Shown here: positions 11,607-52,965 of the stretch, piece after piece
Layout: every line of letters starts with the position of its first letter
How positions within the stretch are numbered: position 1 is the first letter of the stretch
From: Selaginella tamariscina
Lineage: Eukaryota > Streptophyta > Lycopodiopsida > Selaginellales > Selaginellaceae
Assembly: GCA_003024785.1 (NCBI GenBank)
Contig: PUQB01000011.1
Location: 1,164,708 to 1,228,707, forward strand
Length of the DNA stretch: 64,000 nt
Direction of reading: 5' to 3'
Notes under the pieces: model-generated
The model's input: only the letters and a program-made list of their open reading frames with translations
The model's database searches: none
Told to the model about the DNA's origin: nothing
Position numbers and translations under genes: made by a program

Positions 11607-12350
11607 ACTGATGGGCGGGATTAATCCCACCCACGACTCCCTCCGACGAGAACGATGGGCGGGATTAATCCCGCCGATGAAGCTACCCCTTCGGAGAGAG
11701 TCGGCGGGATTAATCCCGTTGTTGACTCTACCCCATCGGAGAGAGTCAGCGGATTAATCCCGCCGCCGATTCCCTCCCGGAGGAAGAATCAGCGGGATTA
11801 ATCCCGCCGTCGGATCTTCCTCGTCAGAGAAGGTGGTGGGATTAATCCCGCCGCGACTCCCTCCGACGAGGAAGTACCGGGATTAATCCCCCGCCGGATC
11901 TTCTCATCGAGAGAGTCAGCGGGATTAATCCGCCGCAAATCCCTCGACGAGGAAGAGGGGCAGGATTAATCCCGCCCACAACTTTGACGATGGGGAATAG
12001 GCGGGATTAATCCCACCCACAACTCTCTCCGAAGTTATGATTTCAAAGAATCTCGGATAAATCCTGCTCACAAATATTTAAAACAGGGAAGTGGTGGCGA
12101 GATTAATCCCGCCACCCCTTCTTTGCCTCCTAAAATAATTCGAGATTAATCCGCAGATAACTCTTTTAATAAATTCAAGTAATCTTTATCAGTTGAGAGA
12201 GTTATCAGCGAGATTAATCTTGTCGCTCTTTTTAAGAGGCGGAAAAGCATTGCCAATCTGCCATAGCTATCAAAAATGGTGGTGGGATTAATCCCGCCAC
12301 CTCTTCGAAGAGGCGAAAAAAAAATGGCCGGATTAATTCCCGCCCCGGTT
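11607..12350. repeat. Palindrome array A (copy 1)
   Basis: About 15 copies of an 18-bp palindrome, consensus GGCGGGATTAATCCCGCC, are spaced roughly 38-48 bp (mostly 41-45) apart. A perfect copy is at 11658-11675. The linkers also contain partly symmetric GC-rich motifs (TCCGACGAGG, CGGAGAGAGTC). The array lies between the head of the DUF7869-like gene and an AT-rich spacer. The same array occurs inverted at 34610-35416 and directly at 56915-57830. It is not coding. Confidence 0.9.
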
Positions 12351-13745
12351 AATTGAGAATATTAAGTTAGAATAACTAAATATATTGTAATCCTAATGCA
12401 TTCCTAAACCCTTAAATTCTAAATTTAAGAGAGAATGTAAGAGAGTGAATCTTTATAACTATATTAAATTTATTTATAATACTTACTTGTAAACAGCACT
12501 GAAGGTGCCGTGCTTTCCTATAAACAATAGCGCACCCAATTTAATGTCACTCCTGAGCTGATCATAAGAAGAAAAAAGAAAATCTGAAGAGTGAAAAATA
12601 AATAAATGAAGAAACCCTTACCAGATCTGAATTTGAGTGGGAAATTAAATGCATTTTCAAATTTACATGTCAGACCAACAATACTTATGTCAAAATTCGA
12701 AATTTTTGAAAATAACAGAAAAGAAAATTTAAGATAGTTGAAACAAATAACCGACAGTCTGACATATATACTTCCAATTCCAATGAATGTTTTAAAATTG
12801 CATTTAATGTTATTTAAGTGATTCAAGCTGTTTAATATTACAAATTTTAATAATTATTTTACATTCTAATATTCAGTATATATTATATATATATATATAC
12901 TTATAAATAAATAAATTGATATATTATTATGTATTATTTAAAATATATTCATAGTCTGTTTATTATTATTATTTTTTAATTACTCGAGTAATTAATTTAT
13001 ATTTCCTACTATTAATGGGATATTCTTTATTATTTTCTTAATATTGAAAGAATATTCCAATATTAAACCTGATTATCAAATTAAATTAGTCTTATTCTTA
13101 ATTATTTAGTAATTATTCTACATTTGTATATATTAATGGGATTTTCTCAATTAATTTCTTATTATTTCAAGAATATTCCTATGTTAAACCTTATTATCAA
13201 TATTAAATTATATATATTTAAAACTATATATGACTATATATTAGATAAAATGATGTATTATTATGTATAATTTAAATATGTTCATAGTGTGTATATTAAT
13301 ATCATTTTCTTAATTACTTGAGTAATTAATCTTCTTTATATTAATGGGATATTCTTTATTATTTTCTTATTATTCCAAGAATATTCCAATATTAAACATG
13401 ATTATCATAATTAATTTAGTTAATTATTTCAGTACTTGATCTACATTTGTATATATTAATGGGATTTTCTCAATTAATTCTTATTTTTTCAAGAATATTC
13501 TAGTGTTAAACCTTATTATCAATATTAAATTAATATATATTATTAAAACTATATATGGCTATATATTAGATAAAATCATATATTATTATGTATAATTTAA
13601 AATATGTTCATAGTGTGTTTATTAATATTATTTTCTTAATTATTCGATGTTTGTGTGTATCAGTATAATTTAATTTGATTTGTCTATCTCTGGCAACACA
13701 CGCACTCTCCTACACACACATATACATATAGATATATATGTGTGT
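12351..13745. other. AT-rich spacer between arrays A and B (copy 1)
   Basis: Very AT-rich, with repeated internal modules (TATTAATGGGATATTCTTTATTATT and relatives appear in about four staggered versions; shorter form TTAATGGGATTTTCTCAATT). The part near 12500-12830 is conserved in the inverted copy at 34100-34460 and the direct copy at 58000-58350, but frames are not conserved, so I do not call a gene. It could hold a promoter for the DUF7869-like gene; no firm motif seen. Confidence 0.6.
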
Positions 13746-13746
13746 A

Positions 13747-14800
13747 GCGGCGGGATTAATCTCGCCGCTATATGGTTAGACCCACATGCGGCGGGATTAA
13801 TTTCGCCGACCTTCAGGCAGGCTATTCAGTTAGCTTCATGAGCGACGGGATTAATCCCGCTGCCCATGAGGCTAATTGAAGAGCAACGGGATTAATCCCG
13901 CCGCCCATGGCCTATGTGCTGGGCCTAGGCAGCGGGATTAATCTCGCTGCCTACACATGCCCTGTGCGAAATCCGGTGGGATTAATCTTGTTGCCTAGGC
14001 CCTTCAGACAAGCCATTAGCGGCTGGATTAATCCCGCTAGATTCTGCATAGGGCATGGGTGTGCGGCGGGATTAATCTTGCCGCCCATGGCCTGCGTGCT
14101 GGGCCTAGATGGCAGGATTAATCCCGCTACGTACGCATGCCCTGCGCGGAATCCGACGGATTTATCCGCCGCCAATGGCTTGTTTAAAGGGCCTAGGCAG
14201 TTGGATTAATCCCGCCGGATTCCACACAGGGCATGGCATGCGGCGGGATTAATCCCGCTGCCTAGGGCCCGAGTGAAGGGCCTGGCAACGGGATTAATCT
14301 CGTCGAATTTCGTGCAGGGCATGCGTAGGCGGGGGATTAATCCTGCATCATGCAGGCCATGGGCGGCGGGATTAATCCCGCTGCACGCCCATGCCCTATG
14401 CGAAATCCGATGAGATTAATCCCGCTGAGCCTTCAATGCCTGGTGGAGGGATGAATCCCGCCACCCTTCTTTTTTCTTCCATTGGTGAGTCGGACCAATC
14501 CCAAACATTTCTGTTTGAGACGTAGAAGGTTTACAACATACCAATGGAGGGGACTGAGAAGGGTGGCGAGATTCATTTCACCATCCCTTACATGGTGGGC
14601 GAGATTAATCTCACCGCCTTTCTGGAGCCCCTGAAGGGATGTGCTGAATAAATCTTGCCCAGTTCTCTCTGAAACCGATAAGGGTGGCGGGATTAATCCA
14701 CACACCCGTTCAGGGCCTCCAGAAAGGTGGCGAGATTAATCTCGCCCACTCTTTTAGGAGGCATTGAATGAGTGGCGAGATTAATCCCGCCGCACTTCCA
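13747..14800. repeat. Palindrome array B (copy 1)
   Basis: About 23 copies of the GGCGGGATTAATCCCGCC family. Successive centres between 13842 and 14409 are almost all 42-47 bp apart, about four helical turns. Linkers repeat motifs such as GGGCCTAGGC and GCCCTGCGCGGAATCC. A perfect paired variant, GGCGAGATTAATCTCGCC, is at 14729-14746. The array ends about 330 bp before the start of the ParB-like gene. Confidence 0.9.
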
Positions 14801-14916
14801 TGTGAATATATATGTGTATTAGTATATTTAAGTTGCATATCTCATTTTATTTACTTTTATTATTTTATTATAATATTTCGAGTAAAAGCCAATAAACTAT
14901 GTAAAACTGTTTAGAA

Positions 14917-14979
14917 CTCACATTTGTGGTGGTTCTAAAACGAAATGTTATCTTTCTTTTGCACTAGCACAAATGTGAG
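14917..14979. promoter_or_regulatory. 12-bp inverted repeat upstream of the ParB-like gene (copy 1)
   Basis: CTCACATTTGTG (14917-14928) faces CACAAATGTGAG (14968-14979) across 39 bp. The same arrangement occurs at 23868-23928 and, mutated, near 63395-63460, always between array B and the ParB-like gene. Conservation in three copies suggests a promoter-proximal protein site or part of the element end; function unproven. Confidence 0.45.
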
Positions 14980-15132
14980 CTTTGGATAGTTAATCTCGTC
15001 CACTTCTCTCTATGTATTATTTTTGTATATTCGGGTTTATACAAGTGTGTGTGCGTTTTTATATGATTTGTATCCATAGTGTATTATTTTACAGAAGGAC
15101 GATTTAATTAAACAAGAGATTAAGTCATTAGT

Positions 15133-18100
15133 ATGGAGTCGTCGTCAAATTCTAAGTAAGAATTAAAATAAAATCTGTTATATTCGGATATGTGCTTGAA
15201 GAATTAATCATTGTATTCAGATGTGGAATTGAGGACATTGAAGACGAGAGCAAGAGAAGAGATGGGCAGGGGATTCTGGAATCAACTTGGCCATATTTCA
15301 AACTAAACGGGAAGCGCATTGGAACAACCATGGTTGCTGTCAAACTAACCTCTGTCACATCGCATGGACAAGCAAAACAATGGAAAGTGGGTGTGCTAGT
15401 CAAGCATCCGAAAGCATGCTGTGAACCCAGATTGAACGATGCTCGACACATATGCCTTGTTCCATCCAATGTCACGTTCTCGATCCAGAGGTCGCCAGTT
15501 ACAACATTAATTTCGTGGTCTTGTCGACTTGTGGATAATGACGTTCACGTTCATTAATGATGTTGACCGTGGAGTTCTTCTTCAACTCAACGAAGCCCAT
15601 CTATGGAGGGGATCCATTAATGTTTACTTCGAAGATCTTCAGACTCATCGAGTTAGGTGTATTCTCAGAGAGATTGCTTCACAATACAGAAAATCCACAA
15701 GTGGAGCAATCGTCCCTCTTCACATTGAAGAAGAACACAGACATCATAAGGAGATTGAGAGGGTGGCTTGGTCTCAGGTTCTTTACAGATCACGTTCAAT
15801 TTGCTTAGAAAATTTCGGGAGCTGGAAGAGTGTGCCGAGAACATTAGAACAGCATCAATCGGGGATCACACATGTTGATTCGGATCGTAGAAGAAAATCA
15901 TTAGTCGTTTTGTCAGCTGCACCTGTGGCATCCCATGCTGCAATAAGCCACAAGGAAATGATGTTGGATGATAGGATTTACGAGTGTAGGGTTAAGTATT
16001 GCAGCGTCAACCCAAACTTCAATTACAGGCCACTCAACAGGAACGTGTAGCTGAGCTCATGGAGAAGATGAAGGACGACAATTCTTACACCGTTCCACAT
16101 AATGCTGTTTTGTGCCATACTACGAGAGAAACAAAGGCGCTGACAAAGTGTGGATCACAACACCGGAACAAATGAGGAAGGTTCAGACGGAGAATAGAAA
16201 ATCAATCAAGTACTACATCATTAGTGGCCAGCACACAATAACGGCAGCCCAACGACTTCTCGACGAACACAACAAAGGAACGATGGCAACAAAACTTTCC
16301 GAGCATACCCGTGAGAAGCTGACGAAAAGATCGGCGTTTTTAGCGAAGCCGAATCTCACAATCGAGCAGTACCATAAGTTATCGGCGGAATGGGACGCTG
16401 CAGACACCAACCACTACAACAGCAAAATATGGGAGAAGTTCAAACACACGCGAGCCGTGTGGGAATCTCTTCAGCGACCACAAAGAGCTACCGCAGGGAA
16501 TACACAATCTGCGGACTACCGGGTAAGCAAATTGTTTGGGCGGGATTTATCTCGCCGGTATATTAATCTGTCTTTTTTTCAGAGTTGAAGAAATTGTAGC
16601 AGTTGATTTTGCCCAGGTGGGCGGGAAGGAAACATCCTTTTTGATGATGTTGATTTCTTGTCCCGAGGATAGGATCTTTGCCAAATGGTTGGGGATTATG
16701 GAATCCTTTGCAAAAGGAACACTGAAGAAGAAGCAGACAAGTGAAGGAGCCCTCAGAGAAGTCTGCAAAGAAACCCAGTAAGACGCCGAAGGCTAAGTCT
16801 GTTCAATCTATAAAGGATGTAGACAACGATTTCAAGCTCACATGGTTGAAGCCTTTAAATGGAACAACGATGGAGGAGATGGAAGTCTTGGCTGATTTGG
16901 TGATTGATGGCAAATTACAGATTAAACAACACCACCCTGGAGAACGGTCAGGCACTTCAAGGAGTGGTTGGGAATACACTGCCACAAACTGGGTTGGACC
17001 TCGGCTTCAACATACGAAGAGGTCAGCAAATATTTGCATGTGACAAACGATGATATGCTTGTCGAATGGGTGAATCAATCGGAAGATCTGGGCAAGAATC
17101 TATTGCACGCCAACGCCAAAAAGGAGAACATTGCGATGACGCCTTCTCTTATGGCAGTCCTTCAGCGGAGAACCGAGTTGAACCTTATAAAGGAGGATGC
17201 TACGAATCACGACAAGCCCTACAGATGTTTGTTGTTGGATTCGGAGACTTTATGGGGTAATCACTGCTTGTAGGAAACCGTTTCAATTGTTCGTGATGGA
17301 TCGGCGGGTGTCAAAAAATCCTTCGACAGACAGGACACTAGAGGATTTGGTGGAGAAACTTAGCCGTGCATGTACAAAGAAGGTATTTATTATTGAATTC
17401 ATACTTGCACTCTTGACTGATATCTACGTTTTCAGGTATTTATTTCTTGATTCTTGCTCATGTCACCGATACCTTTGCCTTCGCCTTTGCCAAGAGGAAT
17501 AAACATCGTTGGACAGGATTTTATATGAATGATGCTGATCCGAAGTGCATTGATTCGGTTGTTCACTTGGTTGTTAGGAATGCGCCAAACAATTTCAAAC
17601 TTCCAAATGACTGGCCAGGCATCTGTTTGCACTCCAACGGCCCTGAACCTCCATCCGATACACCGATAGCTGAGAGTGACGTATTCGGCAATGTACGTTA
17701 TCCAAACATTACAAGTCAAGCGGCACGGAGCATCGTCAACTTGATCAGGGGTCCTCACAGTGATGCGTGGGTTTTTGACTACTGCACTAGGGGGTCCGTC
17801 TTGAAGGAGTGTTACCTTCGGGATACATGTGTGTTTGCCGTTGAAAAGGATAAGACCATGGTTGAGGACCTGAACAAGTGGATAGAGAGGTTCTCAACTG
17901 ACTACCCCAACAAACCCATAAGGAGTATTTGAGAAAGTTCCCTCCCGATAAGTGCGATAGCTCTGAAGACGAATCTGGTTCAATGTCGGAGTCTGAGGAC
18001 GAACTTCAATCAGATATTAGACCGGAAGTTATCTCGAGGAGTACAGAACATTCACAACTCCATTACCCATGGAAACATCAACAGAAGATACGAAGATCTT

Positions 18101-18180
18101 GAACCATCTCACAAGCGGCTAGACCTTCTTCGCCTCACTCAGAAGGTAATAGCGAAGAAGAATTGTTAATGAGTTCTTAG
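15133..18180 (+). pseudogene. ParB-like / possible methyltransferase-tail gene, copy 1 (frameshifted)
   Basis: Exon 1 starts ATGGAGTCGTCG at 15133 and has a GTAAG donor at 15156; exon 2 begins near 15220. The middle carries YRPLN then ELMEKMKDDNS, and YYIISGQHTITAAQRLLDE (about 16211-16265). This resembles the ParB/sulfiredoxin-like fold, where a GxH or GQHR loop follows an instruction-like helix. A lysine-rich linker (KGTLKKKQTSE) follows. The C-terminal part has FVMD near 17295 and DAWVFDYCTRGSVLKE then VFAVEKDK (17762-17850), weakly like motif I of N4/N6 DNA methyltransferases, without a clear DPPY/NPPW motif. The tail is acidic and serine-rich, ending in TAG at 18178. Decay: a 2-bp loss near 15235, a frame break near 15490, and a 2-bp loss at the acceptor of the intron at 16523-16582. 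ParB-like call moderate; methyltransferase call weak. Confidence 0.5.
16523..16582 (+). other. 60-bp intron containing one palindrome unit
   Basis: GTAAGC at 16523 and a pyrimidine tract followed by CAG at 16581-16582 define a very short intron. Inside is GGGCGGGATTTATCTCGCC, a member of the array palindrome family. In the inverted copy (about 22017-22078) the acceptor AGAGAG context keeps the frame, while here two bases are missing, so splicing would give an early stop. Confidence 0.6.
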
Positions 18181-18394
18181 AGTGACGAATAGTTGTAAAT
18201 GAGTGTAACATAAGGCATTTTTGTATATTTCGTTTATATTTGTACAGAAAATAAATTCTCAAGGATTAATGAAGCTTTTAGTTCAAACATGGGTCACACA
18301 TTAACAAGGTAAATAATATACCTTGATAATTTTAAGGTCAGCTAATATCATTTTGCAGATGTAATGAAACAATTGAGAACATGGATTTTCAGCA
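18181..18394. other. Intergenic segment between ParB-like and FCP1-like genes
   Basis: AT-rich; contains a repeat of ACCTTGATAATTTTAAGG-type sequence that also appears inverted near 20200-20300 and near 41640-41760. It probably holds the terminator of the ParB-like gene and the 5' region of the FCP1-like gene. No polyadenylation signal assigned. Confidence 0.4.
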
Positions 18395-18955
18395 TTGCAT
18401 GAGGTAAGAGAGGGGTTTGGCAAATTTCTTGTGCCACATGTCAGAATGACAGAGTTCATGCAGGAAATGGATAATAATGCAGCTCAAAACATCGTTACCA
18501 TGGGGCCACTTTTTTTTCATCATCATTTTTTGGCTTCAGTTCCGAAATCAATTTCTTCAGCGCATGCAATATCTGAATCTTGTAAGGATGATGTACAATT
18601 AAATGATGAAGGGATAGGCAACGAGATAGTGTCAACGATAAATGTGAAAGGGAGCAAACAAGTGATTTGCAAAGTATTCAAGAGGCAACGCTATCCATGT
18701 TACTCATGGCCATATTGTGTTGTTGGATGTCAATGGTGTTCTGCTTCATCGACAAAGGCCCGAGGATAGGAAAAAAGAAATCAAACAAGGAGATTTCATT
18801 CCTTGTCATGGTAAATTTCGATATGATATTATTTTTTCCAGGGTTGGATCGTCTCTTTCAAAAGCTTAAGGAGATGGGTGCTTGTGGGGATTTGGTCATG
18901 TATGCAGATTCATAACTTGACACCGCTGTTAAATTTGCTTAAGAAACATATGCAT
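18395..18955 (+). pseudogene. FCP1/NIF phosphatase-like gene, 5' half (copy 1)
   Basis: Shares with the copies at 19320-20140 and 37660-38690 the stretch SISSAHAISESCKDDVQLND and the following phosphatase start. In the frame near 18700-18760 it reads HGHIVLLDVNGVLLHRQRP, resembling motif I of plant FCP1/SCP-type HAD phosphatases, with DxN in place of DxD. RPGLDRLFQKLKEMG and SCMQIHNLTPLLN appear between 18840 and 18935 in another frame. The gene is cut at about 18955, the turning point of the large inverted repeat. Frameshifts make it non-functional. Confidence 0.5.
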
Positions 18956-19315
18956 GTTGTAACTAAAGTGGGCATGATACGTGAAAATGGGAATATAAAA
19001 TAAATTACTAATTAATATTTAAGTTTTAATTATTAATTAATCATTTAATTAATATGTAATTAAGTCTTAAATATTAATTAATTAATTAATTAATCCTTCA
19101 ATAACCTTACTTAGTAAGGAATATTCCTAAAATATCTTAGAATATTCATATTATTCTAAAAATAGTTTACAATAATTAAGAAATACTATCAAACATAATT
19201 ACAAATAAAATCATTTTCTTCAACATGTTAATTTATTTATAAATACTTTCTTCCTAACCATACAGAGAAATCTCCTCATTTTGTCTAAATCATCACTTTC
19301 CGTCATCCATAATAT
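18955..19315. other. Hinge of the large inverted repeat, AT-rich
   Basis: Contains ATGTTGTAACTAAAGTGGGCAT at its left border and runs of TTAATTAATTAA. The same sequence, inverted, follows the FCP1-like gene at 38700-39150. The left border resembles the terminal repeat of the MITE at 51778-52017, suggesting that a DNA-transposon end lies exactly at the turning point. Confidence 0.5.
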
Positions 19316-19319
19316 CAAT

Positions 19320-20140
19320 ATCAAAATATGGATCGAAAGTGATTGGATGAATACAAGCAATGTTTTGGTTGAGCATAGCTTTCTAAGGAGAGTCGTCTAC
19401 CACTAAGATATGTGCATTCTTCATTATCCTTAAGTGATTGATCTCCCATGAAGCCTAATTAATCTTTCATTCTTGAAGAAGTATGGCTTGCTTTCCTTTC
19501 TTATATTGTGAAATTCGAGAGGTTTATAACACATTCGCTGGTCAAAAATCCAATCTTTACGAATCACCTTTTCTGCAACACTACAATGTTTCTTAAGCAA
19601 ATTTAACAGCGGTGTTAAGTTGTGAATCTGCATGCATGACCAAATCCCCACAAGCGCACCCATCTCCTTAAGCTTTTAAAAGAGACGATCCAACCCTGGA
19701 CGAAAAATAATATCATATTGAAATTTACCATGACAAGGAATGAAATCTCCTTGTTTGATTTCTTTTTTCCTATCCTCGGGCCTTTGTCGATGAAGCAGAA
19801 CACCATTGACATCCAACAACACAATATGGCCATGAGTAACATGGATAACGTTGCCTCTTGAATACTTTGCAAATCACTTGTTTGCTCCCTTTCACATTTA
19901 TTTGTTGACACTATCTCGTTGCCTATCCCTTTATCATTTAATTGTACATCGTCCTTACAAGATTCAGATATTGTAGGCGCTGAAGAAATTAATTTCGAAA
20001 CTGAAACCAATAGAAATGATGATGAAAAAACTGAAGTGGCCCCATGGTAACGATGTTTTGAGCTGCATTATTATCCATTTCCTGCATAAACTCTGTCATT
20101 CTGACATGTGGCACAAGAAATTGTCACCAAACCCCTCTCT
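19320..20140 (-). pseudogene. FCP1/NIF phosphatase-like gene (copy 2)
   Basis: Minus-strand reading across frames gives TMGPLQFFHHHF, ESCKDDVQLNDKGIGNE, HGHIVLLDVNGVLLHR, FRPGLDRLF, LKEMGALVGIWSCMQIHN, LLKKHCSVAEKVIRKDWIFD, CYKPLEFHNIRKESKPYFFK and HILVVDDSP. The order matches FCP1/SCP-type phosphatases: motif I, RPGL block, IWS block, FD-C block, then VVDDSP near the end. A stop follows VVDDSP and at least two frameshifts are present. In the known family these enzymes remove phosphate from RNA polymerase II tails or related substrates in the nucleus; here the DVN motif and decay make activity doubtful. It lies downstream of the ParB-like gene in the same direction. Confidence 0.55.
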
Positions 20141-20408
20141 TACCTCATGGCAATGCTGAAAATCCATGTTCCCAACTGTTTCATTACATCTACAAAATGA
20201 TAGTTAGCTGACCTTAAAATTATCAACGTATATTATTTACCTTATTAATGTGTGACCCATGTTTGAACTAAAAGCTTCATTAATCCTTAAGAATTTATTT
20301 TCTGTACAAATATAAACGAAATATACAAAAATGCCTTATGTTACACTCATTTACAACTATTCGTCACTCTAAGAACTCATTAACAATTTCTTCTTCGCTA
20401 TTACCTTC

Positions 20409-23400
20409 TTAGTGAGGCGAAGAAGGTTTAGGCCGCTTGTGAGATGGTTCAAGATCTTCCGTATCTTCTATTGATGTTTCCATGGGTAATGGAGTGTGTG
20501 AATGTTCTATACTCCTCGAGATAACTTCCAGTCTAATATATGATTGAAGTTCGTCCTCAGACTCCTGACATTAAACCATATTCGTCTTCAGAACTATCGC
20601 ACTTATCGGGAGGGAACTTTCTCAAATACTCCTGTATGGGTTTGTTGGGGTAGTCAGTTGAGAACCTCTTTATCCACTTGTTCAGGTCCTCAACCATGGT
20701 CTTATCCTTTTCAATGGCAAACACACATGTATCCCGAAGGTAACAATCCTTCAAGACGGACCCCCTAGTGTAGTAGTCAAAAACCCACGCATCACTGTGA
20801 GGACCCTTGATCAAGTTGACGATGCTCCGTGCCGCTTGACTTGTAATGTTTGGATAACGTACATTGCTGAATACGTCACTCTCAGCTATCGGTGTACCGG
20901 ATGGAGGTTCAAGGCCGTTGGAGTGCAAACAGATGCCTGTCTAATCATTTGGAAGTTTGAAATTGTTTGGCGCATTCCTAACAACCAAGTGAACAACCGA
21001 ATCAATGCACTTCTGATCAGCATCATTCATATAAAATCCTGTCCAACGAAGTTTATTCCTCTTGGCAAAGAAGAAGACAAAAGTATCGGTGATATGAGCA
21101 AGAATCAAGAAATAAATACCTGAAAACGTAGATATCAGTCAAGAGTGCAAGTATGAATTCAATAATCAATACCTTCTTTGTACATGCTTGCACGGCTAAG
21201 TTTCTCCACCAAATCCTCTAGTGTCCTGTATGTCGAAGGATTTTTTGACACCCGTCAATCCATCACAAACAATTGAAACGGTTTTCTATAAGCATTGATG
21301 GTACCCATAAAGTCTCCGAATCCAACAACAAACATCTGTAGGGCTTGTCATGATTCGTAGCATTCTCCTTTATAAGGTTCAACTTGGTTCTCCGCTACTA
21401 AAGGACTGCCATAAGAGAAGGCGTCATCGCAATGTTCTCCTTCTTGGCGTTGGCGTGCAATAGATTCTTGCCCAGATCTTCCGATTGATTCACCCATTCG
21501 ACAAGCATATCATCATTTGTCACATGCAAATATTTCCTAACCTCTTCGTATGTTGAAGCCGAGGTCCAACCCAGTTTGTGGCAGTGTATTCCCAACCACT
21601 TCTTGAAGTGCCTGACCGTCTTCAACTTCATTGCCTTGAGATGAAAAGGAGAGGTGGGGCTGCTATTGTTAATCTGTAATTTGCCATCAATCATCAAATC
21701 AGCCAAGACTTCCATCTCCTCCATCATTGTTCCATTTAAAGGCTTCAACCATATGAGCTTGAAATCGTTGTCTACATCCTTTATAGATTGAACAGACTTA
21801 GACTTCGGCATCTTACTGGGTTTCTTTGCAGACTTCTCTGAGAGCTCCTCTTCACTTGTCTGCTTCTTCTTCAGTGTTCCTTTTGCAAAGGATTCCATAA
21901 TCCCTAATCATTTGGCAAAGATCCTATCCTCGGGACAAGAAATCAACATCATCAAAAAGGATGTTTCTTTCCCGCCCACCTGGGCAAAATCAACTGCTAT
22001 AATTTCTTCAACTCTCTGAAAAAAAAAAAGAGAGATTAATATACCGGTGAGATAAATCCCGCCCAAACAATTTACTTACCCAGTAATCCGCAGATTGTGT
22101 ATTTCCTGCAGTAGTTCTTTGTGGTCGTTGAAGAGATTCCCACACGGCTCGCGTGTGTTTGAACTTCTCCCATATTTTGCTATTGTAGTGGTTGGTGTCT
22201 GCAGTGTCCCATTCCGCCGATAACTTATGGTATTGCTCGATTGTGAGATTCGGCTTTGTTAAAAACGCCGATCTTTTTGTCAGCTTCTCACGGGTATGCT
22301 CGGAAAGTTTTGTTGCCATCGTTCCTTTGTTGTGTTCGTCGAGAAGTCGTTGAGCTGCCGTTATTGTGTGCTGGCCACTAATGATGTAGTACTTAATTGA
22401 TTTTATATTCTCCATTTGAACCTTCCTCATTTGTTCCGGTGTTGTGATCCACACTTTGTCAGCGCCTTTGTTTCTCTCGTAGTATGCGCACAAAATAGCA
22501 TTATGTGGAATGATGCAAGAATTGTCGTCCTTCATCTTCTCCATGAGCTCAGCTACATGTTCCTGGTTGAGTGGCCTGTAATTGAAGTTTGGGCTAACGC
22601 TGCAATACTTAAACCTACACTCGTAAATCCTATCATCCAACATCATTTCCTTATGGCTTATTATAGCATGGGATGCCACAGGTGTAGCTGACAAAACGAC
22701 TGATGATTTTCTTCTACGATCTAAATCAACATGTGTGATCCCCGATTGATGCTGTTCTAATGTTCTCGGCACACTCTTCCAGCTCCCGAAGTTTTCTAAG
22801 CAAATTGAATGTGATCTGTAAAGAATCTGAAACCAAGCCACCCTCTCAATCTCCCTTATGATGTCGCTGTGTTGTTCTTCAATGTGAAGAGGGACGATTG
22901 CTCCACTTGTGGATGTTCTGTATTGTGAAGCAATCTCTGCTGAGAATACACCTACTCGATGAGTCTGAAGATCTTCGAAGTAGACATCCAGTTGGATCCC
23001 CTCCATAAATGGGCTTTTGTTGAGTTGAAGAAGAACTCCACGGTCAACATCATTAGTGAACACGTGAACGTCATTATCCACAAGTCGACAAAACCACCCG
23101 AAATTAATGTTGTAACTGGCAACCTCTGGATCTGAGAACGTGACATTGGATGGAACAAAGTAGATTAATCGAATCATTTTGGTCAATATCTTGATGTTGT
23201 TGCCACCACCTTACACTCTCACGAATGCAATTGGAAGTTGCCATCCTTGTTAATACATAAGATGTAATAAGACCAGGTCTGCATAAAGGTTCATCTAAAG
23301 AATGATGTTTCTTAAGAATAATATTATAAAGCGCCCGGTTGCTATCCTTCATTTTATAAAACTCAAAATCACGAGAAGAAAAGCTTCAGAAAATGTTTGA

Positions 23401-23713
23401 TACTGTGGATATTGCTCACAAAAGTTTTCAAGATTCTTCTTTCTGAGACACGTATCCAAGTAATTCACTAGCTCCATGCGATGCGACAGAGGTTAGTTTG
23501 ACAGCAACCATGGTTGTTCCAATGCGCTTCTCATTTAGTTTGAAATATGGCCAAGTTAATTCCAGAATCCCCCTGCCCATCTCTTCTCCTGCTCTCGTCT
23601 TCAATATCACCTCAATTCCACATCTGATGATTAATTGATTAATTCTTTAAACACATATCCGAGTATAACAGATTTTATTTTAATTCTTACCCAAAATTTG
23701 ACGACGACTCCAT
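20409..23713 (-). pseudogene. ParB-like / possible methyltransferase-tail gene, copy 2 (best preserved)
   Basis: Start ATG at 23713 (MESSSNFG), donor GTAAG, then an exon with GIEVILKTRAGEEMGRGILE. The long exon (23186-22008 open frame, 392 codons) holds NFNYRPLNQEHVAELMEKMK, PHNAILCAYYE, TPEQMRKVQ and YYIISGQHTITAAQRLL (about 22342-22391). The next exon resumes as RVEEIIAVDFAQVGGKETSF after an in-frame splice near 22017. The tail has DAWVFDYYTRGSVLKDCYL and VFAIEKDK and ends after KRPKPSSPH at 20409. Defects: TGG to TGA near 21910, and replacement of about 40 codons near 23165-23474 by FCP1-like sequence. ParB-family proteins bind palindromic parS sites and CTP in bacteria; that this protein binds the neighbouring palindromes is my inference. 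Confidence 0.55.
23165..23474 (-). pseudogene. Inserted C-terminal segment of the FCP1-like gene
   Basis: Within the ParB-like copy 2, sequence reading ASELLGYVSQKEES, then MKDSNRALYNIILKKHHSLDE and CRPGLITSYVLTRMATSNCI, matches 38380-38680 downstream of VVDDSPQKAML in the plus-strand FCP1-like copy. It replaces the ParB-gene sequence present at 15365-15465 (copy 1) and 63890-63980 (copy 4). It is therefore a mosaic made by recombination or gene conversion. Confidence 0.65.
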
Positions 23714-23867
23714 ATTAATGACTTAATCTCCTTTTAATTAAATCGTACTTCTGCAAAAAGATACACTATAAATACAAATCATATAAAAACGCACACACAC
23801 TTGTATAAACCCAAATATATAAAAATAATACACAAAGAGAAGTGGACGGAATTAACTGTCCAAAGTT

Positions 23868-23928
23868 CACATTTGTGCTAGTGCAAAAGAAAGATAACAT
23901 TTCGTTTTAGAACTACCACAAATGTGAG
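23868..23928. promoter_or_regulatory. Inverted repeat upstream of ParB-like gene (copy 2)
   Basis: CACATTTGTG (23868-23877) faces CACAAATGTGAG (23917-23928). Same position and spacing class as the pair at 14917-14979. Confidence 0.45.
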
Positions 23929-24049
23929 CTCTGGACAGTTTTACATAGATTCCTAGCTTTTACTCGAAATATTATGATAAGATGATAAAAATAAATAAAA
24001 TGAGATATGTAACTTATATATACTAATACACATATATATTCATATGGAA

Positions 24050-24936
24050 GGTGCGGCGAGATTAATCTTACCACCCCTTCAATGCCTCCTGAAAGAGTGG
24101 CGGGATTAATCTCACCACCTTTCTGGAGGCCTTGAACGGGAGTGCGGGATTAATTCTGGCACCCTTCTCGGTCTCAGAGAGAACTTGACAGGATTTATTT
24201 GGCACACCCCTTCAGTGGCTCCAGAAAGGCTGCGGGATTAATCTCGCCCACCATGTAAGGGATGGTCAAATGAATCTCGCCACCCTTCCTAGTCCCCTCC
24301 ATTGGTATGTTGTAAACCTTCTACGTCTCAGACAGAAACGTTTGGGATTGGTCCGACTCACTAATGGAGAAAAAAGGAAAGGGTGGCGGGATTCATCCCT
24401 CCAATAGGCATTGAAGGCTCGGTAGGATTAATCCTGCCGCCCAGGCCCTTCACTCGAGCCCTAGACGGTGGGATTAATCCCGCTGAACGCCAATGCCCTG
24501 CACGGAATCGGGCAGGATTAATCCCGCCGCCTAGGCCCTTCAGGCATGCCTTTGGTGGCAGGATAAATTCCGCCTGATTCCGCGCAGGGCATACATACGC
24601 GGCGGGATTAATCCCGCCGCTTAGGCCCTTCACTCGGCCCTAGGCAGCGGGATTAATCCCGCTGGACGCCAATGCCCTGTGCGGAATCCGGCGGGATTAA
24701 TCCCACCGCCTAGGCCCTTCAGACAGGCCAATGGCAACGGGATAAATCCCGTCAGATTCTGCACAAGGCATGTGTAGGCGGCGGGATTAATCTCGCCGCT
24801 CATGAGGCTAACCGAATAACCTGCCTAAAATGGTGACGAAATTACTCATAAGGCTAACCAAATAGCCTGCCTAAAGGCGGCGGGATTAATCCCGTTGCCA
24901 AGGGTCTAACCATATAGCGGCGGGATTAATCCCACC
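24050..24936. repeat. Palindrome array B (inverted copy 2)
   Basis: About 18 palindromes with the same linkers as array B copy 1 (TAGGCCCTTCA, ATGCCCTGC), read in the opposite direction. A perfect GGCGGGATTAATCCCGCC is at 24601-24618. The array ends at the border of a dinucleotide microsatellite. Confidence 0.9.
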
Positions 24937-27723: not shown

Positions 27724-28130
27724 TGTAAGGATCATGGGTTATTTTTTTAGTTTTTTTTACCTTTCACGGACTTGAACCCGAGACCTTTTGGCTAACACAC
27801 ATGTGTTAACCAACTGGTCCGTATGATCCTGGATGCTGAACTACACCATCAACAGCAAGGCGTATATTCATACGCATGTTCCAGACCATTGTGGACCACA
27901 CATTCCAGACCAGTTGTGGATCACACATTCCAGACCAGTTGTGGACCATACAATCCTCAGGACCTCAGATATATAAACAGGGTTCCAGTTCCAGGTTTCT
28001 CAGAATCATTCAACACCAGTCTTCGGCCTTGTGTTTCATTTTGTATTCATTTCTTTCTTGAATACAATCTCCTCCTTTCAAGGTTCCACCCTTGTTCTAA
28101 AGGTTTCGCCCTTTGCACAAGGTCGTGACA
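27724..28130 (+). repeat. 5' LTR of the Ty3/gypsy element
   Basis: TG...CA borders, 407 bp. It shares with the 3' LTR the ATATATAAACAGGGTTCCAG stretch, which could be the promoter and start region, and a CTTGAATACAATCTCCTCC block near the end. I could not recognise a standard tRNA primer site directly downstream. Confidence 0.9.
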
Positions 28131-28286
28131 GTTTGAATGATTCTGGTAGTGACAAGCTTCTGTTTCCGCTTGTCATCGATCCCATTTTCTTTCTTTCTCT
28201 TTCAATTTTCTTTTCGATTTTTTCTTTTCTTTTTCTTTTCTGATTTTCTTCTCTTTTTCTTTTTGATTTTTCTTCTTCGACTCATC

Positions 28287-29190
28287 ATGTCCGAGCATGC
28301 TCTTCATGAGCAAGTTGCTGCCCTCCAGCAGCAGCTCGAACAACTACACCTGGAGAATGATCAGCTCCGACAGCGTGCGAATTCTCCAGAGCCAAAGATC
28401 AGCATGCCCGAAAAGTTCGATGGTACCCGATCGAAGTTCCGAGGTTTTCTCAATCAAGTTCGTCTGCGGATCGTGATGCAGCCGAGGCGCTACAGCACAG
28501 AACCCATTAAGGTTGGATTGATCGGGTCGCTGCTTTCTGGTTCTGCTCTTTCATGGTTCTCAGCCTTGCTGGAGAACAATGATCCGATCCTTGGGAATTT
28601 TGACGAGTTTGTGGAACGGTTCACGGCGATGTTCAGTGACGTGGATCGTGAGAGTGCTGCCATCACCAAACTCCGTCAGCTTCACCAAGGGGGTATGTCG
28701 GTAGCAGAGTACGCATCGAAGTTTCAACTTCTTGCTTGTGATGTCACATGGGGAGATCGTGCTCTCAAGGAGGTTTTCGGTCGGGGTTGCAGGACGAGGT
28801 CAAAGACATGTTGCTGAATTTTGCGGTTCCGGAAACCCTCACCAGCATGATCGAGTTGGCAATTCGTTGTGACAACCGGTTGATCGAGCGGAAACAAGAA
28901 CGTCGGCATCCTTCTTTCTTCTTGGTGCCGTCTTCTTCCATTTCTGCAGTCCCTGTTCCCTCATCTGCTGATTCATCATCTTCCTCAGTAGAACCATCCC
29001 GATGGAATTAGGGCGATCACGCCGAGGCAAGCTTTTGCCAACCGAACGTCAGAAGCGGATTCAGTACAAGCTTTGTTTGTACTGTGGGGACCCGTACCAC
29101 AAGTTGGAGAATTGTCATCGACGTCCAAAACAAGCTCGTGAAGTGGCCCTTGCTGTGCTGCCGGGAAACGAGAAGATCCAGCCCGAATAG
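28287..29190 (+). CDS. gag: gag polyprotein region (frameshifted)
   Basis: Starts MSEHALHEQVAALQQQLEQL, a predicted coiled coil, then ISMPEKFDGTRSKFRGFLNQ and SALSWFSALLE, typical of Ty3/gypsy capsid (retrotrans_gag). A frameshift near 28770 moves the frame to EVKDMLLNFAVPETLTSM. After a stop near 29010 and a second frame change a zinc knuckle CLYCGDPYHKLENC (CX2CX4HX4C, about 29068-29110) follows. Gag forms the cytoplasmic particle that packages element RNA; the knuckle binds RNA. A TAG at 29188-29190 ends the knuckle frame. Confidence 0.85.
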
Positions 29191-29291
29191 GAGCCGTCCG
29201 GCTGGATTGCCGTGGAACAACTCATGTTCCTCAAGGCTCTTCACTCATAACATCTTCCCTTCCTCATCTTGGATCCATTCCATCCACGAAG

Positions 29292-32258
29292 GTGTGCAAG
29301 CCGTTCCATGTTCCGGTGCAGCTGAAGACACCAGAGGTGGAGTTCTCTGGTAAAGCTTTGGTGGATAGCGGAGCGAACGCAAATTTCATCGACAAGAATT
29401 TTGCTGTCAAGCACGGGATCCGTCTACATCCTTTGAAGACTCCTGGTTCTGTACGGGTCGTTGATGGAAGATATCAAATCTGGAGCGGTAATAAATGACA
29501 CGGAGTTCGTTGAGGTCGTTGCTTGCGGTGCTGTGTGCAACATCTCCTTCAGTGTTGTTTCTATTCCAGACTCTACGATTATCCTTGGTTTGCCGTGGAT
29601 CGAGTTGGTGGATCCTGGTTGGAGAGAACGTTTCATGAACAGTTTCCCAGCTGTTTCAACTCCAGCCACACTCTTTGATTCCGATCCTGTTCCAGTTCCT
29701 CCTCCACTTCGAGTCTCGCATATCACCTTGAAGCAGTTCAAGAAAGATAGCCGACATGACCCAGCATCCGTGTTCGCGATCAAAGTCTATCCCTGCTCTG
29801 CTAAGGATGTTTCTGTTCCTCCTGCCTTACCAAAGCAGTATGCCGATTTCGCAGACGTCTTCGACAAAAAGAAAGCTTCTGCCTTGCCACCGCACCGTGA
29901 GTACGACTGTCCTATCGATCTCGTTGAGGGTAAGCAGCCGTCCTCCGGTCCCATTTACGGTCTCTCACCAACAGAGTTGGAGACATTGAGGAAATACATT
30001 GAGGAGAATCTTGTCACCGGATTTATCCGTCATTCGCGATCACCGGCTGGTGCTCCAGTATTCTTTGTTTCCAAGAAGGATGGAAGTCTCCGGCTCGTGG
30101 TGGACTACCGAGATCTGAATAAGGTCACCATTCCAAACAAGTATCCTCTCCCGCTCGTCTCCGACATGCTCGAACGTCTTTCTGGTGCCCGGTACTTCAC
30201 AAAGATCGATTTAAGAGGAGCGTACAATCTCATCCGAATTCGAGAAGGGGACGAGTGGAAAACAGCTTTCCGTACACGCTACGGACATTTCGAGTACGTA
30301 GTAATGCCGTTCGGCCTGACAAATGCACCTGCTGTGTTCCAGCACATGGCTAACGATATTTTCGGGACTTCTTGGATTTGTTTGTCATCATGTACCTAGA
30401 CGACATCCTGATATTTTCCAAGACTCGAGAAGAACACGAACGGCATGTACGGTTAGTCTTGGAGAGGCTCCGGAAGCACCACTTGTTTGCCAAGTTGGAG
30501 AAGTGCTCTTTCAGTCAGCAGTCTGTCGAGTTCCTGGGGTACATCATTTCAGCTGAAGGTGTTCACATGGATCCTGCAAAAGTCCGGACTGTATTGGAGT
30601 GGGAGAGACCATCAAATGTTCGTGATGTTCGATGTTTCCTCGGGTTTGCGAACTTCTATCGACGTTTCGTTCGGGATTTCTCCAAGATTGCATTGCCATT
30701 GACGAAGTTGACTGGCAAGGATGTTCCATTTGTCTGGTCCTCTGAGGCTGAGGAGGCGTTCGAGTTCCTAAAGAAGGCGTTCACCTCGGCACCTGTTCTT
30801 ATCCATCCTGACCCTGCGAAGCCATATTTCGTGGAAGCTGATGCCTCTGACTTCGCCATTGGTGGAGTGTTGTCCCAGGAAGGTCCAGATCATCTTCTCC
30901 ATCCCATTGCTTTCCATTCCCGCAAGTTCACTGCACCTGAGATCAACTACGATGTCTACAACAAGGAGCTGCTGGCGATCGTCGATGCCTTTGAGGAGTG
31001 GTGCAGATTCCTTGAAGGTTCCCCGCATGTGGTTAAGGTGTATTGTGATCACAAGAACCTCCAGTACTGGGCAACAGCACGAGTTCTCAATCGACGTCAG
31101 GCGCGATGGGCACAGTCTTTGTCCCGGTTCCGATACGTGATTATTCATCGTCCCGGTCGTCTAAATGGCAAAGCAGATGCCTTATCTCGTCGCAGTTACC
31201 TAGCTCCAGTACCAGGTGAAATCCGATTTGATCAACAAGAACAAGTCATCCTGAGCTCCGACCAGTTGTTGGTAAACGCGCTTTCCCGTTCTTCTGCTCC
31301 AGTTGACACTTCGTTTTTGGATCTAATCCGAGAAAATCTCCCTCAAGACGAGTTTGCTCGTGATGTCCTTGCACATGTTCGACGAGTTCAGCCATTGTCT
31401 TCAGGGTCACAACTACGAGATTATGCTGCTTTCCATCTTCATAATGGGTTGCTGTACCACCACATCCAAATCTATGTTCCGGACGGAGAACTGAGGTTGC
31501 GAGCTGTCCAACACTGCCATGACAACACAGCTGCAGGACATTTTGGCATTCGGAAGACGATCGAGCTGGTACAACGGGTGTTCTGGTGGCCTCGGCTTCG
31601 CGTGTATGTTGAGAGATTTGTGCGATCTTGTGACACGTGCCAGCGTACAAAGCTTCCTCGTCATCGACCGGTTGGACTACTACAGCCTCTTCCTATTGCT
31701 CAGCGGCCATGGTCATCCATCACCATGGATTTCCTCACGGATTTACCGCCTTCTAGAGGGTTTGATGCTGTCCTAGTCATTGTTGATCGGTTCTCTAAGA
31801 TGGCGCACTTTGTTCCCTGCAACAAGACATGTTCGGGTCCTGATGCTGCAGATCTGGTGTACCGGGAGGTGTTCCGTCTTCATGGTCTTCCTGATGAACT
31901 TGTCACTGATCGAGGTCCCCAGTTCACTTCGGCATTCTGGCGGAGATTCCTAGATCGGCTACGTATCACCGGGAAGCTGTCTACTGCACATCATCCTGAA
32001 ACAGATGGACAATCGGAGCGCACGATTCAGACTCTGGAACAATATCTCCGGTGTTTCATTTCTCATCTGCAAGATGATTGGGTCGATCTCCTTCCTGCTG
32101 CCGAGTTCGCGTACAACAACACGGCACACTCATCCATAGGTGTGTCGCCATTTTTGCGTTCTCTGGTGTTCATCCTCGCTGGTCCTACAGCTTGCCCGTG
32201 GTTCCTGGCCTCACCACTGCTGCCGATGATCGTGTTGAGCATCTCGACAGGTCCATGA
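29292..32258 (+). CDS. pol: pol polyprotein region: protease, reverse transcriptase, RNase H, integrase (frameshifted)
   Basis: Aspartic protease motif [13 protein letters not shown] lies near 29355. Reverse transcriptase runs from about 29970 ([34 protein letters not shown]) to the catalytic YLDD at about 30390; a one-base frame change at about 30365 separates the two parts. RNase H starts at [13 protein letters not shown] (about 30830). The integrase zinc finger has H-H-C-C (HCHDN, HFGIRK, CDTC) near 31515-31640. The integrase core shows D (TMDFLTDLP), D (VTDRGPQF) and E ([14 protein letters not shown]). A frame change near 32150 breaks the link to the chromodomain. Order PR-RT-RH-INT identifies Ty3/gypsy. 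Confidence 0.9.
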
Positions 32259-32499
32259 AGAAGTGCAGCATCATCTTCAACGCGCTCGGGATTTGCAACA
32301 ACAAGCTGCTGATCGTTCCCGTTCCTCTCCTCCAGCATTCACAATTGGTGACGTCAAGTGTGGCCACCTCCCTGTGCAATTGGCTATCAACGTTGGCCCC
32401 TGTGACAAGCTGGACTATCAACGCTTGGGGCCATTTCGCATCATCAAAAACTCTCTGATGTGACGTTTCGTCTCGAGCTTCCGCCAACCATCCGGATCC

Positions 32500-33440
32500 A
32501 TCCCTGTGTTCCATGTTTCTTTGTTGGAGCCTTATCATGCTCCTTCTGAACCTGGCCAACTTCTTCCACCACCTCCTCCAGTTACAGTTGCTGGTGAACC
32601 TGAGTTCGAGGTTGCTGCAATTCTTGACTCCAAACTTGTTCGTGGTCAGCTTCACTATTTCGTGGACTGGATCGGTTATCCACCTGGCAAATGAACCTGG
32701 CAACTTCTTCCACCACCTCCTCCAGTTACAGTTGCTGGTGAACCTGAGTTCGAGGTTGCTGCAATTCTTGACTCCAACTTGTTCGTGGTCAGCTTCACTA
32801 TTTCGTGGACTGGATCGGTTATCCACCTGGCAATGAACCTGGCCAACTTCTTCCACCACCTCCTCCAGTTACAGTTGCTGGTGAACCTGAGTTCGAGGTT
32901 GCTGCAATTCTTGACTCCAAACTTATTCGTGGTCAGCTTCACTATTTCGTGGACTGGATCGGTTATCCACCTGGCAAATGCACTTGGGAGCCTGTTGCTC
33001 ATCTTGTTCATGCTCTTGATCTTGTTGCCGAGTTCCATCGAAACGAGCTTCCGCCAACCATCCGGATCCATCCCATGGTTTCTTTGTTGGAGCCTTATCA
33101 TGCTCCTTCTGAACCTGGCCAACTTCTTCCACCACCTCCTTCAGTTACAGTTACTGGTGAACCTGAGTTCGAGGTTGCTGCAATTCTTGACTCCAAACTT
33201 GTTCGTGGTCAGCTTCACTATTTCGTGGACTGGATCGGTTATCCACTTGGCAAATGCACTTTGTTCGTGGTTAGCTTCACTATTTCGTGGACTGGATCGG
33301 TTATCCACTTGACAAATGCACTTGGGAGCCTGCTGCTCATCTTGTTCATGCTCTTGATCTTGTTGCCGAGTTCCATCAACGATGATATCCTGCAAAACCT
33401 GGACCGAGTTCCATCAACGATATATCCTGCAAACCTGGAC
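32500..33440 (+). repeat. Tandemly duplicated chromodomain segment at the pol C terminus
   Basis: The block encoding EPEFEVAAILDSKLV, GQLHYFVDWIGYPPG and the preceding proline-rich lead occurs four times (starting near 32560, 32700, 32840 and 33115), about 133-140 bp each, with one extra partial repeat near 33260. Only the third and fourth are followed by CTWEP-type endings. Chromodomains of chromoviruses guide integration to chromatin marks. A normal element has one; the extra units are out of register and probably not all translated. Confidence 0.8.
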
Positions 33441-33464
33441 CAGTGACACGCAGTGCTCGTCATC

Positions 33465-33478
33465 AAAGGGGGAGATAG
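33465..33478 (+). promoter_or_regulatory. Polypurine tract of the Ty3/gypsy element
   Basis: AAAGGGGGAGATAG lies immediately before the 3' LTR, the expected place for plus-strand priming. Confidence 0.75.
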
Positions 33479-33854
33479 TGTAAGGATCACGGGTTATTTT
33501 TTTGTCTTTCACGAGACTTGAACCCGAGACCTTCTGACTAACACACACATGTGTTAACCAACTGGTCCGTATGATCCTAGATGCTAAACTACACATCAAT
33601 AGCAAAGGCGTATATTCATACGCATGTTCCAGACCAATTGTGGATCACACATTCCAAATCAGTTGTGGACCATACAATCCTCAGGACCTCAGATATATAA
33701 ATAGGGTTCCAGTTCCAGGTTTCTCAGAATCATTCAACACCAGTCTTCGGCCTTGTGTTTCATTTTGTATTCATTTCTTTCTTGAATACAATCTCCTCCT
33801 TTCAAGGTTCCACCCTTGTTCTAAAGGTTTCGCCCTTTGCACAAGGTCGTGATA
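33479..33854 (+). repeat. 3' LTR of the Ty3/gypsy element
   Basis: 376 bp. It differs from the 5' LTR by scattered changes and lacks one GTGGACCACACATTCCAGACC unit of the short internal repeat that the 5' LTR carries. The divergence indicates an insertion that is not brand new. Confidence 0.9.
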
Positions 33855-41800: not shown

Positions 41801-41808
41801 TTGTTACT

Positions 41809-43784: not shown

Positions 43785-43950
43785 GGAAGGGGTGGCGAGA
43801 TTAATCTGACCACCCTTTTAAGAGGCAATGAAGGGGGTGGCGGGATTAATACAGCCACCCTTCTTTGTCTTAGAGAATGGTGGGTGGGATTAATCCCGCC
43901 CACCACGCAAGGAAGGGGTGGCATGATTAATCCCGCCACCACTTCCTTAC
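43785..43950. repeat. Short palindrome array (B type)
   Basis: Four palindromes at about 43, 36 and 46 bp spacing, for example GGTGGGATTAATCCCGCCC near 43875. It lies directly upstream of the truncated ParB-like copy 3, as array B does for the others. Confidence 0.8.
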
Positions 43951-52920: not shown

Positions 52921-52965
52921 TCAATGGAATAGGCTTTTCATTCTCTCCACTTTTGAAGAGTATTG

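What the first reader, a model, noticed from the sequence alone, without database searches (positions are those of the whole stretch)
11607..24936. Arrays of an 18-bp palindrome next to a ParB-like gene: a possible parS-like system in a plant element
Arrays of GGCGGGATTAATCCCGCC occur in every unit, and array B always sits a few hundred bases upstream of a gene with a ParB-like GQH loop (copies at 15133, 23713, 43765, 63747). Bacterial ParB proteins bind palindromic parS sites of about 16 bp. A eukaryotic element carrying both a ParB-like protein and dense palindromic sites would be new to me. The array could serve segregation, silencing escape, or transposase binding.
Basis: partly seen in the sequence, partly recalled or inferred. 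Interest (0 to 1): 0.88.

Follow-up and report, generated by a model that had tools for sequence, protein, structure and literature searches.

The report
Transposon with promoter arrays of palindromes
A large, very abundant jumping gene in what looks like a plant genome carries dozens of copies of one short palindrome in front of its two main genes and one inside an intron; these look like docking sites for a regulator of the element itself, not the bacterial chromosome-segregation system first suggested.

Summary
The arrays are real: 78 sites with up to 3 mismatches in the window against 0 in shuffles, and 27,128 exact copies in the 300.7 Mb home genome, control 0. It carries a DUF7869 gene, divergent from an orphan ~950-aa gene (the 'ParB-like' one), and downstream an NIF-type phosphatase gene. 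One array lies upstream of each divergent gene. A further site sits in an intron of the orphan gene in 8 of 8 main-family copies examined and in a diverged relative, whose array keeps the ~45-bp period but has palindrome centre TT/AA, never TA (0 of 10). Palindromes are conserved while spacers are nearly random.

ParB homology found no support in Pfam, PHROGs, NCBIfam or comparison with 80 bacterial ParBs; the structure model was unusable. Best reading: docking sites of a sequence-specific regulator, probably the element's own, working like the VANC anti-silencing system of Arabidopsis VANDAL transposons, without shown homology. No binding or methylation data exist here.

The parts
11614..12298 (.). 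array A of unit 1 (palindromes upstream of the DUF7869 remnant)
13749..14791 (.). array B of unit 1 (upstream of the orphan 'ParB-like' gene)
12877..13654 (.). AT-rich spacer between arrays A and B, unit 1
15156..18102 (+). orphan 'ParB-like' gene of unit 1, frameshifted copy
16539..16556 (+). intronic palindrome GGCGGGATTTATCTCGCC (centre TT) in the orphan gene, unit 1
18666..18949 (+). 5' part of the NIF-type phosphatase gene of unit 1, cut off at the next element's end
18951..18976 (+). terminal inverted repeat (right type) of the minus-strand element of units 2/3
   Evidence: 1 mismatch
18956..19873 (-). NIF-type phosphatase gene region of unit 2; a 3' piece is displaced to 23163-23474
20409..23646 (-). 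orphan 'ParB-like' gene of unit 2, broken copy; longest frame 22008-23186
22046..22063 (-). intronic palindrome, unit 2 (one change)
24099..24936 (.). array B of unit 2
27724..33855 (+). gypsy-type LTR retrotransposon (type judged by eye from its frames) inserted in the spacer between arrays A and B of units 2/3; LTRs 27724-28131 and 33479-33855
34663..35414 (.). array A of units 2/3
35723..37663 (+). DUF7869 gene of units 2/3, degenerate copy
37692..39144 (+). NIF-gene end of another copy, ending at a right-type terminal inverted repeat (39119-39144)
40747..40772 (+). terminal inverted repeat (left type) of another copy
   Evidence: 1 mismatch
41623..43756 (-). orphan 'ParB-like' gene of unit 4, degenerate; intronic palindrome at 43418-43435 (two changes)
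43839..43937 (.). remnant of array B of unit 4
51471..51804 (+). left-type terminal inverted repeats at 51471-51496 and 51779-51804 (4 mismatches each)
52921..56268 (-). DUF7869 gene of unit 5, interrupted by another repeat at about 54.6-55.9 kb
56918..57780 (.). array A of unit 5
62606..63281 (.). array B of unit 5
63633..63847 (+). region at or just before the start of the orphan gene of unit 5; the gene runs off the window

Best explanation
The palindromes are binding sites, arrayed at both divergent promoters and repeated in one intron of a ~14 kb DNA transposon, for a sequence-specific, probably dimeric regulator. Most likely this is the element's own orphan ~950-aa protein (the 'ParB-like' gene product). 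Binding in multiple at the two arrays (about 12-28 sites each, one per 44-45 bp) would open both promoters and hold off host silencing, so that DUF7869 (the presumed transposase) and the regulator itself are expressed; the intronic site suits self-control. This works like the VANC anti-silencing system of Arabidopsis VANDAL transposons. Shown here: the element, its ends, its gene order, the arrays, the intronic site, conservation of sites and period over spacers, and a diverged relative with a different palindrome centre. Inferred: that a protein binds the sites, that it is the orphan protein, that the result is anti-silencing or activation, and that DUF7869 is the transposase.
For: Arrays sit at both divergent genes: all three genes and both arrays in 6 of 10 loci; L019 has all three genes, one array and a masked stretch; all 10 hold at least one gene. 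Array B ends 420-445 bp before the orphan gene in 6 measured loci. Arrays are internal: in L017 about 3.8 kb from one end and 5.0 kb from the other. Adjacent units: palindromes 0.87 identical, spacers 0.60 (193 pairs); across loci 0.85 against 0.53; shuffled spacers 0.49; 160 of 272 units have a period of 44 or 45 bp. The intronic copy GGCGGGATTTATCTCGCC is identical in 8 of 8 main-family copies examined and differs by 1 base in the diverged L134. In a scan that leaves the centre free (up to 4 arm mismatches) the L134 array has 10 sites, TT 6, AA 4, TA 0; the ten main loci have 328, TA 265, TT 27, AA 10, others 26. L134's gene is 39% identical over 430 residues. The orphan gene shows constraint against a diverged copy in L015: dN/dS 0.20-0.34 in 8 of the 12 lowest pairs printed. 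It is intact in many copies: 87 of the 105 scored matches have no stop, 32 share one score. VANC precedent: motif arrays in introns and upstream regions of VANDAL21, changing together with the protein (PMC5735166, passages).
Against: No DNA-binding domain was recognised in the orphan protein by three profile libraries, and no structure model was usable. No binding, expression or methylation data. The changed centre rests on one locus, itself a broken copy. Palindromes were picked by similarity (up to 5 mismatches), which inflates their measured conservation. The dN/dS of the diverged pairs has dS of 1.7-2.7 (near saturation) and one partner is a pseudogene; the median over all 74 pairs is only 0.54. 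The 105 scored matches are the best of 6,288 candidates, not a sample. Binding by a host factor or by the DUF7869 protein would leave the same sequence pattern.
Confidence: 0.45

Rival explanations
1. The arrays bind a host transcription factor or chromatin protein and were gathered by the element to hijack its activity; the orphan protein has another role.
For: Position at both promoters. GGATT/AATCC half-sites resemble known plant and animal factor sites (recalled, no call). No DNA-binding domain found in the orphan protein.
Against: The centre differs in a diverged element of the same genome (one locus), which is easier if the binder is the element's own and evolves with it. Host sites outside the element were not sought.
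Confidence: 0.25
2. The arrays are docking sites for the transposase (presumed DUF7869 protein) and help transposition or end bridging.
For: DUF7869 is the gene of the element with many relatives elsewhere (80) and is next to array A.
Against: Arrays are internal, thousands of bases from both ends; the terminal repeats do not contain the palindrome; one site is in an intron of another gene.
Confidence: 0.12
3. The arrays are a tandem repeat kept uniform by slippage or gene conversion, with no function.
For: Tandem arrays commonly homogenise (general knowledge); changes in window sites are mostly C to T or G to A, 185 of 250, as expected of methylated DNA. Symmetric double changes are not in general above expectation.
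Against: Homogenisation should keep spacers as alike as palindromes; they are near random. The lone intronic site is identical in 8 of 8 copies.
Confidence: 0.1
4. A parS-like partition system bound by a true ParB protein.
For: GQH motif after a strand-like YIIS, and dense palindromes near the gene.
Against: No ParB profile match, hhalign P 0.59; integrated element with terminal repeats and target duplications; no ParA-type domain among the frames scanned.
Confidence: 0.03

Closest known systems
VANC anti-silencing system of VANDAL transposons, Arabidopsis
   Same: Arrays of a short motif in noncoding parts of the element, in upstream regions and also in introns; motif arrays diverge between families along with the protein; multi-gene DNA transposon (PMC5735166, passages; PMC10398659, abstract and outline).
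   Different: Here the motif is an 18-bp palindrome with a 44-45 bp period rather than a 9-bp motif in one orientation; gene set differs (DUF7869 and NIF phosphatase); duplications are 4 bp, shorter than I recall for Mutator-like elements; homology to VANC was not tested with a VANC profile; no anti-silencing was measured.
Sola2 DNA transposons
   Same: 4-bp target duplications, short imperfect terminal repeats, large elements with extra genes (PMC3627910, passages).
   Different: Sola2 examples there have AT-rich duplications; no transposase comparison was made, so superfamily membership is open.
DUF7869 proteins of bryophytes, cnidarians and bivalves
   Same: The element's DUF7869 gene has 80 relatives at E<=1e-5, among them Physcomitrium, Riccia and Calypogeia.
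   Different: Their genome neighbourhoods were not examined; whether they carry palindrome arrays is unknown.
Bacterial ParB/parS
   Same: Palindromic sites near a gene with a GQH motif.
   Different: No detectable homology; sites in promoter arrays of a transposon.

Membership tests
ParB/parS partition system | ParB N-terminal domain recognised by profile | tested here: not met
   No ParB family in Pfam, PHROGs, NCBIfam; hhalign against 80 Bacillota ParBs prob 0.1%, P 0.59
ParB/parS partition system | GERR-type nucleotide-binding motif (recalled) | tested here: not met
   Intact copy L032 has GQH, no GERR
ParB/parS partition system | ParB/Srx fold | tested here: inconclusive
   AlphaFold2 pLDDT 30.5; tool then switched off
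ParB/parS partition system | partner ParA ATPase gene | tested here: inconclusive
   No ParA-type family reported for the frames scanned; not every frame of the element was scanned and no ParA profile was run on its own
TIR DNA transposon | terminal inverted repeats | tested here: met
TIR DNA transposon | fixed-length target site duplication | tested here: met
   4 bp in 8 of 14 end pairs (L011 and L013 share flanks), shuffled mean 0.76, max 4
TIR DNA transposon | DDE/RNase H-like transposase | tested here: inconclusive
   DUF7869 has invariant Q, D, N, K, GHT, D, D; solved structures gave only chance hits, E 0.44 and 1.6
VANC-like anti-silencing system | dense motif arrays in noncoding regions of the element | tested here: met
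VANC-like anti-silencing system | motif diverges together with the protein between families | tested here: inconclusive
   one diverged locus, L134
VANC-like anti-silencing system | protein binds motif and removes DNA methylation | not testable with these tools
   needs bench or methylome data
VANC-like anti-silencing system | homology to VANC proteins | not tested
   no VANC profile or sequence was compared
N6/N4 DNA methyltransferase (considered for the orphan's C-terminal part) | DPPY and FxGxG motifs, profile match | tested here: not met
   No such motif; hhalign prob 0.2%, reversed control 2.1%, positive control 99.9%
NIF/FCP1-type phosphatase (third gene) | PF03031 profile above cut-off | tested here: met
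   46.2 bits, cut-off 21.8, on the 356-aa frame of L019

The most novel reading that the evidence does not exclude
An orphan, element-encoded protein without any known domain is a sequence-specific anti-silencing factor that evolved independently of VANC in a DUF7869 transposon, reads a long palindrome at 44-45 bp spacing over two promoter arrays and one intron site, and let this one family grow to roughly 2,000 element equivalents in a 300 Mb genome.
Probability: 0.3. Interest if true: 0.78.

Novelty: new variant of a known kind. Interest (0 to 1): 0.6.

Why it matters
If true, self-protection by arrays of docking sites would have arisen in a second type of transposon, which makes it a general strategy rather than an Arabidopsis curiosity, and would give a test to an orphan protein and to DUF7869. 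The 27,128 exact copies also mean that any factor that binds this palindrome is drawn to thousands of places in the host genome.

Tried and rejected
ParB homology: profile libraries, PDB sequence search, hhalign, one structure model; no support.

Methyltransferase reading of the orphan's C-terminal part (my own guess from a D-Y-C-T-R-G-S stretch): rejected; the score lay below that of the reversed control.

Relatives of the orphan protein in 5.8 billion proteins: none at E<=1e-3 for the window exon and none at E<=1 for a joined query. Both queries came from broken copies and the search needs shared 5-residue words, so absence is weak evidence. Viral contigs: no relative of the exon; the 18-mer occurs in one viral contig.

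Mutation-rate comparison of array parts between copies (core 2.3%, arms 8.1%, array spacers 11-12%) can be misled by register slips between repeat units, so I rely instead. Symmetric double changes within palindromes were not in general above expectation: only pair 5/14 stood out, 9 observed, 5.2 expected.

A first count of palindrome centres used a different consensus for each family and so leaned towards the expected centre, and it left out two L134 sites; I replaced it by the centre-free scan.

A 2-bp TA duplication was my first guess; rejected for 4 bp.

Papers: DUF7869, 0 papers; the 12-mer core, 1 unrelated paper by its title; ParB with transposon and bryophyte or N6-adenine terms, 2 unrelated and 0; other transposon searches showed no description of this element in the titles and abstracts listed, which for searches are part of the papers found. 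This covers only the held open-licence library.


Full report
WHAT WAS CHECKED. The window is G000:C113:1164708-1228707 of an unnamed 300.7 Mb assembly in 1,391 contigs. The 18-mer GGCGGGATTAATCCCGCC occurs 78 times with up to 3 mismatches in the window, 4 of them exact, against 0 in 100 shuffles. Allowing 5 mismatches gives 109 sites, 103 of them in seven arrays and 6 outside. Genome-wide there are 27,128 exact copies; the same pattern read backwards gives 0.

THE ELEMENT. Self-comparison of the window shows repeated units in both orientations, with a gypsy-type retrotransposon (type judged by eye) inserted in one. To see the unit outside this crowded window I fetched ten 20-kb stretches of contig C1 that cover the ten clusters behind the first 100 exact hits listed. 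All ten hold at least one gene of the unit: seven hold all three genes (L009, L011, L013, L015, L017, L019, L025), L023 the orphan and phosphatase genes, L021 only DUF7869, L027 only a decayed orphan gene. Six of the seven carry both arrays; L019 shows one and has a masked stretch. In these six the order is DUF7869 gene, array A, AT-rich spacer (28% GC in L009), array B, orphan gene, phosphatase gene, with the two main genes pointing away from each other. The other 27,000 or so sites were not examined one by one.

ENDS. Similarity between copies stops sharply at inverted ends that read TATGCAAGTTGTAACTAAAATGGGCATG on the DUF7869 side and a near-identical repeat on the other side. The pattern TGCANGTTGTAACTAAARTGGGCATG occurs 1,361 times forward and 1,314 times reverse in the genome, reversed control 0; among the 100 places listed many face each other 12-15 kb apart. 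Comparing the flanks of 14 element copies (ten facing pairs picked and fetched, plus L011, L013, L019, L025), 8 of 14 show an identical 4-bp duplication, against a mean of 0.76 and a maximum of 4 in 2,000 shuffled pairings; L011 and L013 share flanks, so 7 distinct sites. The other six show none. Other lengths from 2 to 9 matched in at most 1 of 14. The element is therefore a normal integrated DNA transposon in its ends. It measures 13.6, 13.6 and 13.8 kb in L011, L013 and L025, 11.9 kb in L019 and about 14.4 kb in L017. Dividing 27,128 exact sites by the mean of 12.9 per 20-kb locus in seven loci gives about 2,100 element equivalents; this is a rough figure.

GENES. (1) DUF7869 (PF25273): 6.8e-17 in the window and 1e-26 on a frame of L009, with 80 relatives at E<=1e-5 in the protein collection, including the bryophytes Physcomitrium, Riccia and Calypogeia, cnidarians and bivalves. 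In 48 aligned relatives Q, D, N, K, GHT, D and D are invariant, which suits a metal-binding nuclease core, but a profile search of solved structures gave only chance hits (E 0.44 and 1.6). That it is the transposase is an inference. (2) The orphan 'ParB-like' gene: in the intact copy L032 three frames of 478, 304 and 253 codons, trimmed at splice sites judged by eye, give a protein of about 950 residues. (3) An NIF-type phosphatase gene: PF03031, 46.2 bits on a 356-aa frame.

RECENT ACTIVITY AND CONSTRAINT. A search of the genome with the window exon gave 6,288 first-look candidates; of the 105 best that were scored, 87 have no stop inside, many with a frame of 478 codons, and 32 share one score. 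Against the diverged copy in L015 the orphan gene has dN/dS 0.20-0.34 in 8 of the 12 lowest pairs printed, with dS 1.7-2.7 and one partner a pseudogene; the median of all 74 pairs, mostly decaying copies, is 0.54. The six lowest DUF7869 pairs have 0.08-0.21, median 0.53 over 45 pairs, and the phosphatase median is 0.69 over 43 pairs.

THE SITES. In 272 repeat units the period is 44 or 45 bp in 160. Adjacent units keep 0.87 identity in the palindrome and 0.60 in the spacer; units of different loci 0.85 and 0.53; shuffled spacers 0.49. Since palindromes were chosen by similarity their figure is inflated, but near-random spacers together with a steady period are not explained by simple tandem copying. 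Most changes in the window sites are C to T or G to A, 185 of 250, and each base of the ATTAAT core is kept in at least 95%. One site lies alone in an intron of the orphan gene. It reads GGCGGGATTTATCTCGCC, with TT in the centre, in 8 of 8 copies examined (L009, L011, L013, L015, L017, L023, L025, L032) and in window unit 1; units 2 and 4 have one and two changes.

A DIVERGED RELATIVE. A query from the diverged L015 copy found, among 150 scored of 2,349 candidates, its own place, one copy at 67% identity on contig C488, and otherwise matches at 56% or less. The C488 copy was fetched as L134. Its orphan gene is 39% identical over 430 residues and broken by stops, also around the GQH motif, whose conservation can therefore not be judged. 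Upstream lies an array with the same ~45-bp period. In a scan with the centre left free and up to 4 arm mismatches it has 10 sites: TT 6, AA 4 (TT on the other strand), TA 0. The ten main loci give 328 sites with TA 265, TT 27, AA 10 and 26 others; the window gives 113 with TA 98. The L134 intron carries the site with one change. So arms, period and intron site seem older than the split, while the array centre has changed. This is one locus only.

PARB OR NOT. No ParB family was reported for the pieces scanned in Pfam, PHROGs or NCBIfam. Comparison with 80 bacterial ParBs gave 0.1% probability; those references are all Bacillota, so a very distant relation is not excluded. The structure model had a mean pLDDT of 30.5. 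A methyltransferase idea of my own failed too.

INTERPRETATION. Sites at both divergent promoters, at near-constant distance from the orphan gene (420-445 bp in 6 measured loci), plus one in its intron, point to regulation by a protein that reads the palindrome. The nearest known case is VANC of Arabidopsis VANDAL transposons, where tandem motif arrays in introns and upstream regions guide a protein that removes silent marks, and arrays and protein change together (PMC5735166, passages read; PMC10398659, abstract and outline). The likeness is in layout; sequence homology was not tested. Whether the binder is the orphan protein, a host factor or the DUF7869 protein cannot be told from sequence; I favour the orphan protein because the site centre differs between element families within one genome. 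The host species is unknown; 'plant' rests on the bryophyte relatives of DUF7869 and is not proven, since cnidarians and bivalves have relatives too.

Noticed in passing
23163-23474: A 313-bp piece of the phosphatase gene's 3' part (element positions 13714-14026 of L017) lies inside the 5' region of the orphan gene of unit 2, while the rest of the phosphatase gene is at 18956-19873: a rearrangement.
   Followed up: partly
51471-52016: Facing terminal repeats at 51779-51804 (+) and 51991-52016 (-) enclose 238 bp, as in a short non-autonomous derivative, though the stretch also matches the element's own left end.
   Followed up: partly
3236-4096: Reading frame with a match to Transposase_21 (tnp2, E 4.6e-7), apart from the element described.
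   Followed up: no
54605-55884 and 60236-61817: Another repeat family, 72-82% alike, inserted in the DUF7869 gene and in the spacer of unit 5.
   Followed up: no
48527-50249: LINE-like frames on the minus strand (judged by eye; the one frame scanned, 49545-50249, had no Pfam hit).
   Followed up: no
10640-10980: A 169-bp tandem repeat whose minus-strand frame resembles the N-terminal part of the orphan protein (VLLQL..EGI), beside the DUF7869 remnant of unit 1.
   Followed up: no
L011 and L013: Two copies of the element about 19 kb apart on contig C1 share the same flanking sequence on both sides, so the flank itself is duplicated.
   Followed up: no
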